NCBI GenBank assembly: GCA_017617545.1
Contig: JAFZVZ010000016.1
Coordinates: 27,543 to 91,542, forward strand
Length of the DNA stretch: 64,000 bases
DNA from: Lachnospiraceae bacterium
Lineage (GTDB): Bacteria; Bacillota; Clostridia; Lachnospirales; Lachnospiraceae
Reading direction: 5' to 3'
The notes under the pieces are model-generated. The model was not told the origin of the DNA and ran no database searches. It was given only the letters and a program-made list of their open reading frames with translations. Positions 1,058-64,000 of the stretch are shown one piece after another (position 1 is the first letter of the stretch; the number at the start of each line of letters is the position of its first letter). A program made the position numbers and the translations under genes.

Positions 1058-1465
1058 TTATTCTTTATTGGCCAGCCGAAGCCGGATCAAAGCCTTCCGA
1101 AGCGACAGCTCCGCGCGGTCCAGGCTCATGGACGACTCGGATTTCAACCGGCGCTCGGCACGGATCTTCTCTTCCTCGGCGCGGTGGACATCGATCTCGT
1201 CCGGCCACTCGCACGCCTCCGACAGGATGATGATCTCATCCTGCAGGATCGTGGCAAAGCCGTCGAGAAGCGTTGCTTCCTGCGTCTCGCCGTCCTTCGT
1301 GATGCGAAGCACACCGGGCGCAACCACGACCGTCAACGGAACGTGGTTTTTGTACACGCCGATATCGCCTTCGGTTGTCGTAAACTCGACCAGATCGGCA
1401 TTCCCCTCAAAGAACACTCTCTGCGGGGAAAATACCTTCAGCCGAATGTATCGTTCATCAGCCAT
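1058..1465 (-). CDS. atpC: F-type ATP synthase epsilon subunit
   Basis: A 135-aa central-stalk subunit of F1 that couples rotation to catalysis and can inhibit ATP hydrolysis. The N-terminal beta-sandwich is recognisable (RVFFEGNADLVEF, then GDIGVYKNHVPL), followed by the C-terminal helical hairpin rich in Arg/Glu (ERRLKSESSMSLDRAELSLRK). Length is normal for the family. It starts seven bases after the atpD stop and is the last gene of the atp operon before the hairpin at about 1 kb. Confidence 0.97.
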   Translation of the reverse strand: MADERYIRLKVFSPQRVFFEGNADLVEFTTTEGDIGVYKNHVPLTVVVAPGVLRITKDGETQEATLLDGFATILQDEIIILSEACEWPDEIDVHRAEEEKIRAERRLKSESSMSLDRAELSLRKALIRLRLANKE

Positions 1466-1472
1466 AATTCAC

Positions 1473-2870
1473 TCACTCTCTGTTTCTCGCGCGCTCCACA
1501 ACGTCCTCGATGCCGCCCGCGTTCAGGAAGAAGCTCTCCGGAATGTCATCGTGCTTGCCTTCGAGGATCTCCTTGAAGCCCTGGATCGTCTCGGAGAGCG
1601 GGACGTATTTGCCGGGAAGACCGGTAAACTGCTCCGCCACATGGAACGGCTGGGACAGGAAACGCTGTACCTTGCGGGCACGCGCCACGAGAAGCTTCTC
1701 GTCCTCGGACAACTCGTCCATACCGAGGATCGCGATGATATCCTGAAGTTCCTTGTATCTCTGAAGGATCTCCTGCACGCCACGGGCAACCTTGTAGTGC
1801 TCGTCGCCGACCACTCTCGGGTCGAGGATGCGGGATGTCGAATCAAGCGGGTCAACTGCCGGATAGATACCGAGCTCCACGATGGAACGGGACAAAACGG
1901 TCGTCGCGTCGAGGTGGGCGAAGGTCGTCGCCGGCGCGGGGTCCGTCAGGTCATCGGCAGGCACATAAACGGCCTGAACCGAGGTGATGGAACCGCTCTT
2001 TGTGGAGGTGATGCGCTCCTGGAGCACACCCATCTCCGTCTGCAGCGTAGGCTGGTAACCTACGGCCGAAGGCATACGTCCGAGAAGTGCGGACACTTCC
2101 GAACCGGCCTGTGTGAATCGGAAAATGTTGTCAATGAACAGGAGGACGTCCTTGCCGCCCTTGTCACGGAAATACTCCGCCATCGTAAGACCCGTGAGGC
2201 CTACGCGCATACGCGCTCCCGGCGGCTCGTTCATCTGACCGAAGACCATGGTCGTCTTGTTGATAACACCGGACTCGATCATCTCGTAGTAGAGGTCGTT
2301 ACCCTCACGGGTACGCTCGCCTACGCCGGTGAATACGGAATAACCGCCGTGCTCCGTCGCGATGTTGGTGATCAGCTCCTGGATCAGGACGGTCTTGCCT
2401 ACACCGGCACCGCCGAAGAGACCGATCTTACCACCCTTCTGGTACGGGCAGAGCAGGTCAACGACCTTGATACCCGTCTCGAGGATCTGCGTCTCGGTCG
2501 ACTGCTCCGCAAAATCCGGCGCGGGACGGTGGATCGGATAGTACTCCACATCCTGCGGGGGCTCCTTCTCGTCGATCGGCTCGCCGAGGACGTTGAACAT
2601 ACGTCCCAGCGTCTCCTCGCCTACCGGCACCGTGATCGGCGCTCCGGTGGACTCGGCATCCATGCCGCGAACCAGACCGTCCGTCGGGCCCATGGCGATA
2701 CAGCGGACCGTATCGTCTCCGAGGTGCTGAGCAACCTCGACAACCAGTATTTCACCGTTCTTCCGGCGGATCTTGATGGCATCATAGATCTCCGGAAGAT
2801 TTCCCTCCGTGAACCGGATGTCAAGAACGGCACCGATGATCTGTGTTATCTTACCAATGTTTTTCTCCAC
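1473..2870 (-). CDS. atpD: F-type ATP synthase beta subunit
   Basis: A 465-aa catalytic subunit of F1. Visible hallmarks are the P-loop [10 protein letters not shown] near residue 155, the [11 protein letters not shown] segment holding the catalytic Glu, [16 protein letters not shown], and the DELSEDEKL form of the DELSEED lever. Length is typical. It follows atpG after an unusually long 154-bp gap containing two inverted repeats and a degenerate copy of the atpG tail. The leader also carries one copy of the dispersed GGAAAAT motif (2935-2941). Confidence 0.99.
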
Positions 2871-2956
2871 GGTAGTACACTCCTTGATTTATTTCTCCTG
2901 TAACCGTTTGTGAACCGTTCCCCGCGCATTCCGCGGAAAATGATCCCGATTATAAC

Positions 2957-3045
2957 TTACGTATCCAGTGCGTTATTACGTCAAGCCGCTCACGCGCCTT
3001 GACGGCTACGCAAACGCTCCGACACTACGTGTCGAGTGCGTTTGC
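2957..3045 (-). repeat. Hairpins and ghost of the atpG tail in the atpG-atpD gap
   Basis: Positions 2957-2980, read on the minus strand, encode RNNALDT-stop, matching the real atpG end NALDT-stop (3025-3042) at 15 of 18 bases. Between them lie two inverted repeats: CGTCAAG/CTTGACG (2979-2985 with 2998-3004) and GCAAACGC/GCGTTTGC (3010-3017 with 3038-3045). The second encloses GACAC/GTGTC and covers the atpG stop codon. Confidence 0.6.
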
Positions 3046-62351: not shown

Positions 62352-62448
62352 ATTGTATCACAGGACGGAAAATAATTGGTTACAAAGCTATTACATTTTC
62401 CGAATAAATCCTTACATTTGTGTTGCGTTCTGTTACGGCTTTGTTACG
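62352..62448 (-). promoter_or_regulatory. Pho-box-like promoter of the DUF-A/DUF-B/PstS2 operon
   Basis: Minus strand -10 TACAAT (62352-62357). TTAC elements on the plus strand begin at 62380, 62391, 62412, 62433 and 62444, spaced 11, 21, 21 and 11. The first begins 28 bp from the -10. Two GGAAAAT motifs in opposite orientation (62367-62373, 62395-62401) also lie here. Confidence 0.75.
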
Positions 62449-62474
62449 ATGACGAACCCGCGCCCCCCGCGGAC

Positions 62475-62510
62475 AAAAACAGGGCCGAAGGATGTGCTCC
62501 TCCGGCCCTG
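62475..62510 (-). terminator. Terminator of valS
   Basis: Minus strand CAGGGCCGGAGGA...TCCTTCGGCCCTG followed by TTTTTG, about 27 bases past the stop. Confidence 0.9.
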
Positions 62511-62536
62511 CGGGTTTGTTCGGTTTACTTCGGAAA

Positions 62537-64000
62537 TTACCGTGCTGTAAGGTGAGCAAGCTGCTCCTCAACCTGCTTCATCATCGCGGTGTATTTTTCG
62601 AGCTTTCCGCGCTCCTCGGCGATCTTCGCCTCGGGTGCCTTGGATACGAAGCGCTCGTTGCTGAGCATGCCGTTGACACGGGCAAGCTCGCCGGTCAGGC
62701 GCTCCTTCTCCTTCTGAAGACGCTCGATCTCCTTCGCGATGTCCACAAGATCCGACATCGGCATGTAGATCGTCGCACCTGCAACCACAACGGACACAGC
62801 GTCGGCGTCAATACCGGTCTTATCGCTCTGAACAGTTACCTCACTCGCACTTCCGAGTGCCGCGAAGAAGTCCTTGCTGCCCTCGAAAATGCCGCGGATG
62901 TGCTCGTCATCGGAGACAACGAACACCTTCGCCTTGCGCGACGGCGGAACGTTCATATCGTTGCGGAGTACACGCATTGCAGTAACGGCGTTCTTGATCA
63001 GCTCAACCGCCTCTTCCTCCTTGCTCCATACGAAGGACTTTATAAACTCAGGCCACTCGGAGATCATGATGGAGGTGTCGTCCGTGAGGTGTCCCTGTGC
63101 ATCGGCAAGCGTGCGGTAGATCTCCTCGGTGATGAACGGCATGAACGGGTGCAGCAGTTTCATCGACGTCGTGAGAACCATACACAGCGTGAACATCGCT
63201 GCCTGCTTCGTCTTCAGCTCCGTGCCGTAGAGACGAGGCTTCACCATCTCGATATACCAGTCGCAGAACTCGGACCAGATAAAGTCGTAAATCTTGCCTG
63301 CAGCGATACCGAGTTCGAAGCTCTCGAGGTTCTCGGTCACGTCAGCTACGAGCTGATTGCACTTCGAGAGGATCCAGCGGTCCGCATCCGTGAGTGCGTT
63401 CATGTCGATCATTGCGTTCATGTCGACCTGCTCGAGGTTCATCATGATGAAACGGCTCGCGTTCCAGACCTTGTTCGCGAAGTTTCTGCTCGCCTCCACA
63501 CGCTCCCAGTAGAAGCGCATGTCGTTGCCGGGCGCGTTTCCGGTAACAAGCGTGAAGCGAAGCGCGTCAGCGCCGTATTTGTCGATCACTTCGAGAGGAT
63601 CGATACCGTTTCCGAGGGACTTGCTCATTTTCCGACCCTGAGAGTCGCGAACCAAACCGTGGATGAGAACCGTCTTGAACGGAACCTCGCCCATCTGCTC
63701 AATGCCGGAGAACATCATTCGCATTACCCAGAACGGGATGATGTCATAGCCGGTAACAAGCGTGCTCGTCGGGTAGAAATACTCAAGCTCCTTGGTCTTC
63801 TCCGGCCAGCCGAGAGTCGAGAACGGCCACAGAGCCGAGCTGAACCAGGTGTCCAGAGTGTCGGGATCCTGGCGCATGGGCTTGCCGCACTTCGGGCAAA
63901 TTGCGCTGTCTTCCTTCGTAACTACCGTCTCGCCGCACGCGTCACAGTAGAACGCCGGGATCCGATGACCCCACCACAGCTGGCGGCTGATGCACCAGTC
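62537..64000 (-). CDS. valS: Valyl-tRNA synthetase, C-terminal part (cut by window edge)
   Basis: The last 487 codons of a class I synthetase; the 5' end is outside the window. DWCISRQLWWGHRIPAFYC marks the join to the catalytic core, with a zinc-like CDACGE...CPKCGK pair just after. KMSKSLGNG is the ATP-binding KMSKS motif; an anticodon-binding helical domain and a C-terminal coiled coil (KEIERLQKEKERLTGELARV) complete it. Typical ValRS architecture and end. Confidence 0.96.
   Translation of the reverse strand, partial: DWCISRQLWWGHRIPAFYCDACGETVVTKEDSAICPKCGKPMRQDPDTLDTWFSSALWPFSTLGWPEKTKELEYFYPTSTLVTGYDIIPFWVMRMMFSGIEQMGEVPFKTVLIHGLVRDSQGRKMSKSLGNGIDPLEVIDKYGADALRFTLVTGNAPGNDMRFYWERVEASRNFANKVWNASRFIMMNLEQVDMNAMIDMNALTDADRWILSKCNQLVADVTENLESFELGIAAGKIYDFIWSEFCDWYIEMVKPRLYGTELKTKQAAMFTLCMVLTTSMKLLHPFMPFITEEIYRTLADAQGHLTDDTSIMISEWPEFIKSFVWSKEEEAVELIKNAVTAMRVLRNDMNVPPSRKAKVFVVSDDEHIRGIFEGSKDFFAALGSASEVTVQSDKTGIDADAVSVVVAGATIYMPMSDLVDIAKEIERLQKEKERLTGELARVNGMLSNERFVSKAPEAKIAEERGKLEKYTAMMKQVEEQLAHLTAR

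What the first reader, a model, noticed from the sequence alone, without database searches (positions are those of the whole stretch)
1427..63633. Dispersed 7-mer GGAAAAT (cGGAAAATg) at about one copy per kb on both strands
By hand I count about 61 copies of GGAAAAT/ATTTTCC in 64 kb. Base composition near 58% GC predicts about 4-8. Some 38 copies are preceded by C and about 35 followed by G. Orientation is balanced (about 32 to 29), which argues against a Chi or KOPS-like polar motif. Copies lie inside conserved genes (atp, groEL, gltA, valS) and in nearly every intergenic gap. Examples: 2935, 5466, 12181, 21163, 24935, 37240, 38907, 42694, 50639, 62367. Density and symmetry resemble DNA-uptake sequences or HIP1. 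I know of no such element described for Clostridia.
Basis: partly seen in the sequence, partly recalled or inferred. Interest (0 to 1): 0.85.

Follow-up and report, generated by a model that had tools for sequence, protein, structure and literature searches.

The report
Uptake-sequence-like DNA word in rumen bacteria
The genome of an uncultured gut bacterium of the Clostridia is sprinkled with about a thousand copies of one short DNA word that changes slightly from species to species, which looks like the 'self' label that two Gram-negative families use when taking up DNA; whether it works that way is untested.

Summary
GGAAAAT occurs 65 times in the window (32 +, 33 -) against 8.9 expected, the top 7-mer. 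Genome-wide, CGGAAAATG occurs 1005 times, the reversed word 7. In 294 other genomes drawn from the order the highest count is 184; 18 of 21 congeners exceed that (212-1060), while G298, G307 and G313 do not. Synonymous-codon shuffles leave 40 coding copies where 327 are seen. There is no replication polarity. Copies turn over between species but are kept more often than control words. Dialects exist: cGGAAAATGc, GGMAAATGYSA in G301, CGGCAAATNC in G309. ComEA matches in 22 of 22 genomes, ComEC in 20, full-length PilB-like ATPase in 17. Two adenine-methyltransferase families do not track the word.

Best reading: a DNA uptake sequence in Gram-positive Lachnospiraceae, a device reported only from Neisseriaceae and Pasteurellaceae. 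Uptake and receptor are not shown, and motif-less congeners keep the same machinery.

The parts
885..891 (-). GGAAAAT copy
1427..1433 (+). GGAAAAT copy
2120..2126 (+). CGGAAAATG copy (inside atpD, antisense)
2935..2941 (+). CGGAAAATG copy
4020..4026 (+). GGAAAAT copy (inside atpA, antisense)
4249..4255 (+). GGAAAAT copy (inside atpA, antisense)
4867..4873 (-). GGAAAAT copy (inside atpA, sense)
5299..5305 (-). GGAAAAT copy (inside atpA, sense)
5466..5472 (+). CGGAAAATG copy
6549..6555 (-). GGAAAAT copy
7885..7891 (-). CGGAAAATG copy
9129..9135 (-). GGAAAAT copy
9360..9366 (-). GGAAAAT copy
11189..11195 (+). GGAAAAT copy
11355..11361 (+). GGAAAAT copy
12181..12187 (-). CGGAAAATG copy
15443..15449 (-). 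CGGAAAATG copy
15550..15556 (+). GGAAAAT copy
15619..15625 (+). GGAAAAT copy
17567..17573 (-). GGAAAAT copy
18368..18374 (-). GGAAAAT copy
19895..19901 (-). CGGAAAATG copy
19936..19942 (+). GGAAAAT copy
20313..20319 (+). GGAAAAT copy
21163..21169 (+). CGGAAAATG copy
22100..22106 (-). GGAAAAT copy
22238..22244 (-). GGAAAAT copy
22811..22817 (+). GGAAAAT copy
22895..22901 (-). GGAAAAT copy
24935..24941 (+). CGGAAAATG copy
25095..25101 (-). CGGAAAATG copy
27265..27271 (+). GGAAAAT copy
27354..27360 (-). GGAAAAT copy
28378..28384 (-). GGAAAAT copy
33557..33563 (+). GGAAAAT copy
34250..34256 (+). CGGAAAATG copy
36230..36236 (+). GGAAAAT copy
36672..36678 (-). GGAAAAT copy
37240..37246 (+). CGGAAAATG copy
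37360..37366 (-). GGAAAAT copy (inside groEL, sense)
38907..38913 (+). CGGAAAATG copy
39906..39912 (+). CGGAAAATG copy
41113..41119 (-). GGAAAAT copy
42219..42225 (-). GGAAAAT copy
42694..42700 (+). CGGAAAATG copy
43714..43720 (+). GGAAAAT copy
45044..45050 (+). CGGAAAATG copy
45586..45592 (+). GGAAAAT copy
45688..45694 (-). GGAAAAT copy
47600..47606 (+). CGGAAAATG copy
47639..47645 (+). GGAAAAT copy
49094..49100 (+). GGAAAAT copy
49825..49831 (-). GGAAAAT copy (inside the aspartyl-tRNA synthetase gene, antisense; kept in 4 of 5 relatives aligned)
50105..50111 (-). GGAAAAT copy (inside the aspartyl-tRNA synthetase gene, antisense; kept in 1 of 5 relatives aligned)
50639..50645 (-). CGGAAAATG copy
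51827..51833 (-). GGAAAAT copy
51863..51869 (+). CGGAAAATG copy
53413..53419 (-). GGAAAAT copy
54270..54276 (-). GGAAAAT copy
54501..54507 (-). CGGAAAATG copy
55649..55655 (+). GGAAAAT copy
61452..61458 (-). CGGAAAATG copy
62367..62373 (+). GGAAAAT copy; close inverted pair with the next
62395..62401 (-). CGGAAAATG copy; inverted pair with 62367
63627..63633 (-). CGGAAAATG copy (inside valS, sense)

Best explanation
The word is most likely a DNA uptake sequence of a naturally competent, Gram-positive Lachnospiraceae genus. Proposed mechanism: a minor pilin at the tip of the type IV pilus, or another surface DNA receptor, prefers DNA carrying [T-rich]-cGGAAAATGc. The pilus retracts, ComEA and ComEC bring in one strand, and recombination writes it into the chromosome. 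Because fragments that carry the word enter more often, the word accumulates by biased uptake in both orientations, at permissive codons and between genes, until about one copy per kb labels the genome as 'self'. As the receptor drifts, the word drifts with it, giving species dialects around a shared core. SHOWN here: the excess, its restriction to most of one genus, symmetry, codon-level accommodation, turnover with above-control conservation, dialects, and presence of ComEA, ComEC and a pilus operon. INFERRED: natural competence, that uptake is what selects the word, and that a pilin reads it.
For: 65 versus 8.9 expected in the window; 1005 genome-wide versus 7 for the reversed word. 18 of 21 other genus members have 212-1060 copies, above the highest (184) of 294 other genomes drawn from the order. 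Coding copies 327 versus 40 in 40 synonymous-codon shuffles, on both strands (181 sense, 146 antisense); 5.4-fold over an order-3 model in coding and 4.5-fold in intergenic DNA. No replication polarity: 259 versus 234 after orienting by GC skew, p = 0.28. At aligned sites the word is kept in 88 of 248 cases versus 655 of 2961 for same-composition words, and 16 of 37 versus 70 of 289 in a second set. Dialects sharing an AAAT core, broadly following a ComEC tree of 18 genomes. ComEC in 20 of 22, ComEA in 22 of 22, 21 over cut-off, full-length PilB-like ATPase in 17 of 22; pilus operon in G000. Two terminase-bearing regions of G296 hold 9 copies in 34 kb versus 45 in 60 kb of its comEC contig.
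Against: No uptake or transformation data exist and no receptor was identified. The motif-less species G307 and G313 keep ComEA, an intact ComEC and the same pilus operon, so machinery does not predict the motif. G304 has 435 copies although its ComEC reads with stops, and G295 (324 copies, 82% complete) shows no PilB-like match. The low density in the pilus operon is not special to motif-rich species: it is also seen in G307 and G313 (0.17 versus 0.62 per kb). DprA, ComF and competence regulators were not searched. Position conservation is modest (odds ratio 1.9); genome by genome only 1 of 6 comparisons (G305) is below p = 0.05, and at least 8 of 81 control words are kept at 40% or more against 35% for the motif. 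Close inverted pairs are only mildly in excess: 31 of 43 neighbours within 60 bp. Most competent organisms show sequence-independent uptake (PMC12040237, passages).
Confidence: 0.6

Rival explanations
1. A HIP1-like word kept by DNA methylation: a conserved methyltransferase marks the site and repair or selection builds up its number.
For: Comparable density and genus-wide spread; HIP1 and alternate HIPs track methyltransferases, and HIP1 can be replaced by other words (PMC4390886, abstract). G000 has one strong PF01555 DNA methyltransferase match.
Against: The word is not palindromic. PF02384 has no match in 10 of 22 genomes, among them G000, G303, G305, G308, G309 and G312. PF01555 passes its cut-off in 8 of 22, among them motif-less G307 and not G305 (1060 copies), G300, G303, G309 or G312; 12 more have only weak, mostly partial matches below the cut-off. 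PF07669, PF13659 and cytosine methyltransferases were not searched.
Confidence: 0.12
2. Binding site of an abundant chromosome-organising or segregation protein that needs about one site per kb on either strand.
For: Dense, symmetric, non-polar distribution in genes and gaps.
Against: Known segregation motifs are polar or clustered (recalled); polarity is absent here. Dialect change between congeners fits an uptake receptor better (inference). No candidate protein was looked for, so this rival is weakly tested.
Confidence: 0.18
3. Chi-like recombination hotspot for AddAB.
For: Short over-represented non-palindromic word.
Against: Chi sites are expected to favour the leading strand (recalled); here 259 versus 234. 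CGGCAAG, polar 186:84, would be a better Chi or KOPS candidate in this genome.
Confidence: 0.04
4. By-product of codon or amino-acid usage, translation signals, or a transposable repeat.
For: The commonest frames are Glu-Asn in sense and Phe-Ser in antisense.
Against: Synonymous-codon shuffles give 40 copies versus 327 seen; both strands and intergenic DNA show the excess. Flanks beyond a few bases are near random, so copies are not a spread repeat.
Confidence: 0.01

Closest known systems
Neisseriaceae DNA uptake sequence (DUS) and its dialects
   Same: Hundreds to thousands of copies, average distances of about 1.15-1.5 kb, dialects consistent with phylogeny around a conserved core (PMC3630211, abstract; PMC2397512, passages).
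   Different: Different word (shared letters AAAT rather than core CTG); Gram-positive Clostridia host; inverted pairs only mildly in excess; no counterpart of the receptor ComP identified; uptake untested.
Pasteurellaceae uptake signal sequence (USS)
   Same: Short core word enriched genome-wide at about 1 kb spacing, evolving by point mutation rather than insertion (PMC7811141, passages).
   Different: Different word; the soft flank here is a T-rich stretch upstream; host phylum differs; uptake untested.
HIP1 of cyanobacteria
   Same: Dense, dispersed word that some related genomes lack or replace (PMC4390886, abstract).
   Different: HIP1 is palindromic and tracks methyltransferases; this word is not palindromic and tracks neither PF02384 nor PF01555.

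Membership tests
DNA uptake sequence (DUS/USS) | Large genome-wide excess of one short word over composition | tested here: met
   493 vs 99 in 459 kb, top 7-mer; 1005 vs 7 for the reversed word
DNA uptake sequence (DUS/USS) | Both orientations, no replication polarity | tested here: met
   492/513; 259 vs 234 by GC-skew orientation of seven samples from six contigs, p 0.28
DNA uptake sequence (DUS/USS) | Lies in genes at tolerated codons and more densely in gaps; arises by point change, not insertion | tested here: met
   0.88/kb coding, 1.9/kb intergenic (my division; 'intergenic' includes genes my caller missed); 327 vs 40 in codon shuffles; relatives hold near-words at aligned sites
DNA uptake sequence (DUS/USS) | Lineage-specific dialects around a conserved core | tested here: met
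   cGGAAAATGc (G000), GGMAAATGYSA (G301), CGGCAAATNC (G309)
DNA uptake sequence (DUS/USS) | Under-represented in newly acquired and diversifying DNA | tested here: inconclusive
   Two terminase-bearing regions of one genome: 9 in 34 kb vs 45 in 60 kb. Pilus operon 0.10 vs 0.62 per kb in 7 motif-rich genomes, but 0.17 vs 0.62 in the two motif-less ones, so that contrast is not motif-specific
DNA uptake sequence (DUS/USS) | Competence machinery (ComEA, ComEC, retractable type IV pilus) | tested here: met
   ComEC 20 of 22 (broken-looking in G298 and G304), ComEA 22 of 22 (21 over cut-off), full-length PilB-like ATPase 17 of 22, partial in G303 and G308, none in G295, G310, G311; also present in motif-less members
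DNA uptake sequence (DUS/USS) | Close inverted pairs acting as terminators | tested here: inconclusive
   31 inverted vs 12 direct of 43 neighbours within 60 bp; termination not tested
DNA uptake sequence (DUS/USS) | Word-dependent DNA uptake by competent cells | not testable with these tools
   needs a culture
DNA uptake sequence (DUS/USS) | Cognate surface receptor (ComP-type pilin) | not tested
   The pilus operon encodes five N-methyl pilins, one weakly GspH-like; DNA binding not tested
HIP1 | Palindromic word | tested here: not met
   GGAAAAT / ATTTTCC
HIP1 | Cognate methyltransferase present where the word is frequent | tested here: inconclusive
   PF02384 and PF01555 do not track the motif; other methyltransferase families not searched
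Chi / KOPS | Leading-strand bias | tested here: not met
   259 vs 234

The most novel reading that the evidence does not exclude
Gram-positive gut Lachnospiraceae evolved, independently of Neisseriaceae and Pasteurellaceae, a complete uptake-sequence system with species dialects that act as sexual barriers. It arose within one genus on a competence pilus that its motif-less members share, with scarcity of conjugative relaxases in motif-rich members as a possible consequence.
Probability: 0.53. Interest if true: 0.92.

Novelty: new variant of a known kind. Interest (0 to 1): 0.82.

Why it matters
[quoted passage not shown] A third case, in Gram-positive anaerobes of the rumen and gut, would show that it can evolve again and without an outer membrane, and would point to active, word-selective natural transformation there. 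The 22 genomes, with motif-rich, dialect and motif-less states, would make the origin and drift of an uptake sequence, and its effect on gene flow, directly testable. It would also give a practical tag for transforming such bacteria once cultured.

Tried and rejected
Considered and set aside: spread repeat (flanks near random); codon artefact; polar segregation or Chi motif; adenine-methylation word (only two families searched). The idea that loss of ComEC explains motif loss failed: G307 and G313 have intact ComEC. The idea that only motif-rich members have the pilus operon failed too. An Rfam scan of the window gave two tRNAs only. Paper searches for the literal words listed papers whose titles are mostly unrelated; I opened none of them on the strength of those searches.

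Weak points of my controls: the reversed word used by the genome search contains TAA, so it is not a pure composition null; the Markov and codon-shuffle nulls are better. My gene caller is a home-made codon scorer. The ortholog tests count related genomes as separate. The two 'prophage' regions rest on one terminase match each. The relaxase pattern (G298, G307, G313, all below the order's top motif count, versus 1 of 19 others; p 0.0026) follows clades, one of the hits is weak, and MAG binning loses mobile DNA. Structure prediction was not used, because its stated rule does not admit loci taken by the fetch from genomes.

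
Full report
OBSERVATION. GGAAAAT occurs 65 times in the 64 kb window, 32 on + and 33 on -, against 8.9 expected from an order-2 Markov model; it is the top 7-mer. C precedes 41 of 65 and G follows 36 of 65. The window lies in a 2.73 Mb, 45-contig assembly, 97.6% complete (G000), where CGGAAAATG has 492 forward and 513 reverse matches and the reversed word 5 and 2. In 459 kb of that genome GGAAAAT is seen 493 times against 99 under an order-3 model (z 39.5); other top words are shifts or one-letter variants of it, or much weaker.

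CONSENSUS. Over 281 copies of CGGAAAAT the flanks give a T-rich stretch upstream (positions -5 to -1), then CGGAAAAT, then G (51%) and C (38%); beyond that the sequence is near random, so copies are not members of a longer repeat. The second G can be T or A: CGTAAAATG 49 against 5.0, CGAAAAATG 38 against 8.1.

WHO HAS IT. Among 295 genomes drawn from the order (G000 included), the next highest count of CGGAAAATG is 184. In the genus (22 genomes including G000) counts are: G305 1060, G300 1042, G315 1019, G000 1005, G302 808, G303 797, G296 763, G312 763, G308 744, G310 728, G309 453, G304 435, G299 421, G314 389, G295 324, G301 272, G297 253, G311 224, G306 212, G298 96, G307 73, G313 63. So 18 of 21 others exceed 184 and three do not. 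In 86 kb of G298 GGAAAAT is at chance (35 vs 34.2) while GGCAAAT is 51 vs 26.1. In 360 kb each, GGAAAATG is near chance in G307 (34 vs 30.8) and G313 (44 vs 32.3). Named relatives found through the aspartyl-tRNA synthetase gene are uncultured Lachnospiraceae, several labelled as from rumen, reticulum or omasum; L002-L005 carry 9-30 copies of GGAAAAT in 14-21 kb, L008 none in 21 kb. I did not link those names to G handles, and the genus name is not known to me.

DIALECTS. In G301 GGAAAATG and GGCAAATG are both in excess (121 vs 23.3; 68 vs 16.8) and are followed by a strong A three bases on (84% and 72%), giving GGMAAATGYSA. In G309 it is CGGCAAATNC (C at +2 in 81% of 95 copies). In G312 the second G may be A or C (3.4-fold and 3.1-fold). 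GGCAAATGCC is 5 and 7 in G307 and G313 but up to 169 in G309. A ComEC tree of 18 genomes puts G000, G296, G300, G302, G305 and G315 together, G303, G308, G309 and G312 next, and G295, G299, G301, G306 and G314 in a third clade, with G307, G313 and G297 apart; 9 of 15 inner branches are well supported and the root is only a midpoint. The dialects broadly follow these clades, but G309 differs from its sisters, and G297 (253 copies) sits beside the motif-less pair.

HOW IT SITS IN THE GENOME. With a home-made gene caller (345 genes, 81.6% of 459 kb) there are 330 copies in genes, 160 between and 3 at edges. Shuffling synonymous codons within each gene, 40 times, leaves 40 copies on average where 327 are seen, on both strands. 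All six frames are used; the commonest are Glu-Asn (sense, 121) and Phe-Ser (antisense, 83). Excess over an order-3 model is 5.4-fold in coding and 4.5-fold between genes. Gaps between copies are near random (mean 897 bp) with a mild excess of close neighbours; of 43 within 60 bp, 31 are inverted (p 0.005). Orienting seven samples from six contigs by the sign of GC skew, 259 copies lie with and 234 against the leading strand (p 0.28).

TURNOVER. Around comEC, 80 kb of G000 was aligned to six motif-bearing congeners at 75-82% identity: the word is kept whole in 88 of 248 cases, words of the same letters in 655 of 2961 (odds ratio 1.9). The pooled p of 5e-6 treats related genomes as independent; singly, only G305 is below 0.05 (p 0.0008), the others lie at 0.053-0.41. 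At least 8 of 81 single control words are kept at 40% or more, above the motif's 35%. G313 had 6 comparable sites (1 kept) and is not in the sum. Around the aspartyl-tRNA synthetase gene the figures are 16 of 37 and 70 of 289. So position is weakly held while density is strongly held.

DESERTS. The longest copy-free stretch in the 479 kb examined is 13 kb and covers the type IV pilus genes from PilC on. Over seven motif-rich genomes that part holds 6 copies in 58.7 kb against 49 in 79.3 kb beside it. But the same contrast is seen in seven others (8 in 59.3 against 30 in 80.7 kb) and in the two motif-less genomes (3 in 17.6 against 14 in 22.4 kb), so it is not a mark of the motif. Two terminase-bearing regions of G296, the only genome of 22 with PF03354 matches, hold 9 copies in 34 kb against 45 in 60 kb of its comEC contig (p 2e-4). 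In Neisseria, uptake sequences are under-represented in diversifying regions and absent from recently acquired genes (PMC2397512, abstract passages).

MACHINERY. ComEC (PF03772): 20 of 22 genomes; the two without, G310 and G311, are fragmented and about 80% complete. In G298 it lies in two frames and in G304 it carries stops. ComEA (TIGR00426): 22 of 22, 21 above cut-off, about 4 kb from comEC in G000. PF00437 ATPases: 22 of 22, but this family includes other secretion ATPases; a full-length PilB-like match (E below 1e-130) is in 17 of 22, partial ones in G303 and G308, none in G295, G310 and G311. The G000 operon encodes PilB-, PilT-, PilC-, PilD- and PilM-like proteins and five N-methyl pilins. 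Adenine methyltransferases: PF02384 above cut-off in 9 of 22, no match in G000; PF01555 above cut-off in 8 of 22, G000 and motif-less G307 included; neither follows the motif.

READING. Density, symmetry, codon accommodation, dialects and machinery fit an uptake sequence; depletion in foreign DNA and inverted pairs are inconclusive; receptor and uptake are untested. The main difficulty is that G307 and G313 have the same machinery without the word; this is expected if the receptor's preference, not the machine, is what changed, but that is inference. A nucleoid-protein site is the rival I tested least. If right, it would be the first such system outside Neisseriaceae and Pasteurellaceae, 'the only families known' (PMC12616744, passage); [quoted passage not shown] PMC12040237, passages). 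A look for such a word in Veillonella, another Bacillota, was inconclusive (PMC5397411, passages). My searches of the held library list at most 20 papers each; no listed title or abstract start reports this word or an uptake sequence in Clostridia; subscription papers and preprints are not held.

NOT DONE.

Noticed in passing
G000 sample loci L082-L101: CGGCAAG is over-represented (322 vs 165) and polar with GC skew (186:84, my sum, p 5e-10): a possible Chi- or KOPS-like word, or only codon usage of leading-strand genes.
   Followed up: partly
G000:C7:47087-58622 (L094:7087-18622): The type IV pilus operon is the largest motif-free stretch seen in the G000 sample; the same part is poor in the word in motif-less congeners too.
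   Followed up: yes
genus genomes, PF03432: Conjugative relaxase matches occur in 4 of 22 genomes: G298 (weak), G307, G313 (the three lowest in motif) and G299.
   Followed up: no
G298:C63 and G304:C57: comEC is split over two frames in G298 and carries stops in G304; could be decay or assembly error.
   Followed up: no
window 33941-35919 and 28378-33557: A secretion ATPase (PF00437) and a T2SSF gene, probably a Tad-type pilus locus (my naming), near a DUF5702 gene; a 5.2 kb motif-free stretch covers the neighbours.
   Followed up: partly
L137-L141 (G306): A G+C-rich repeated word (CCCCGTCCC and overlapping words) stands out in the k-mer table.
   Followed up: no
L200, L201 (G297): G297 has a second, divergent pilus locus (PilB 42% identical to that of G000) besides the usual one.
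   Followed up: no
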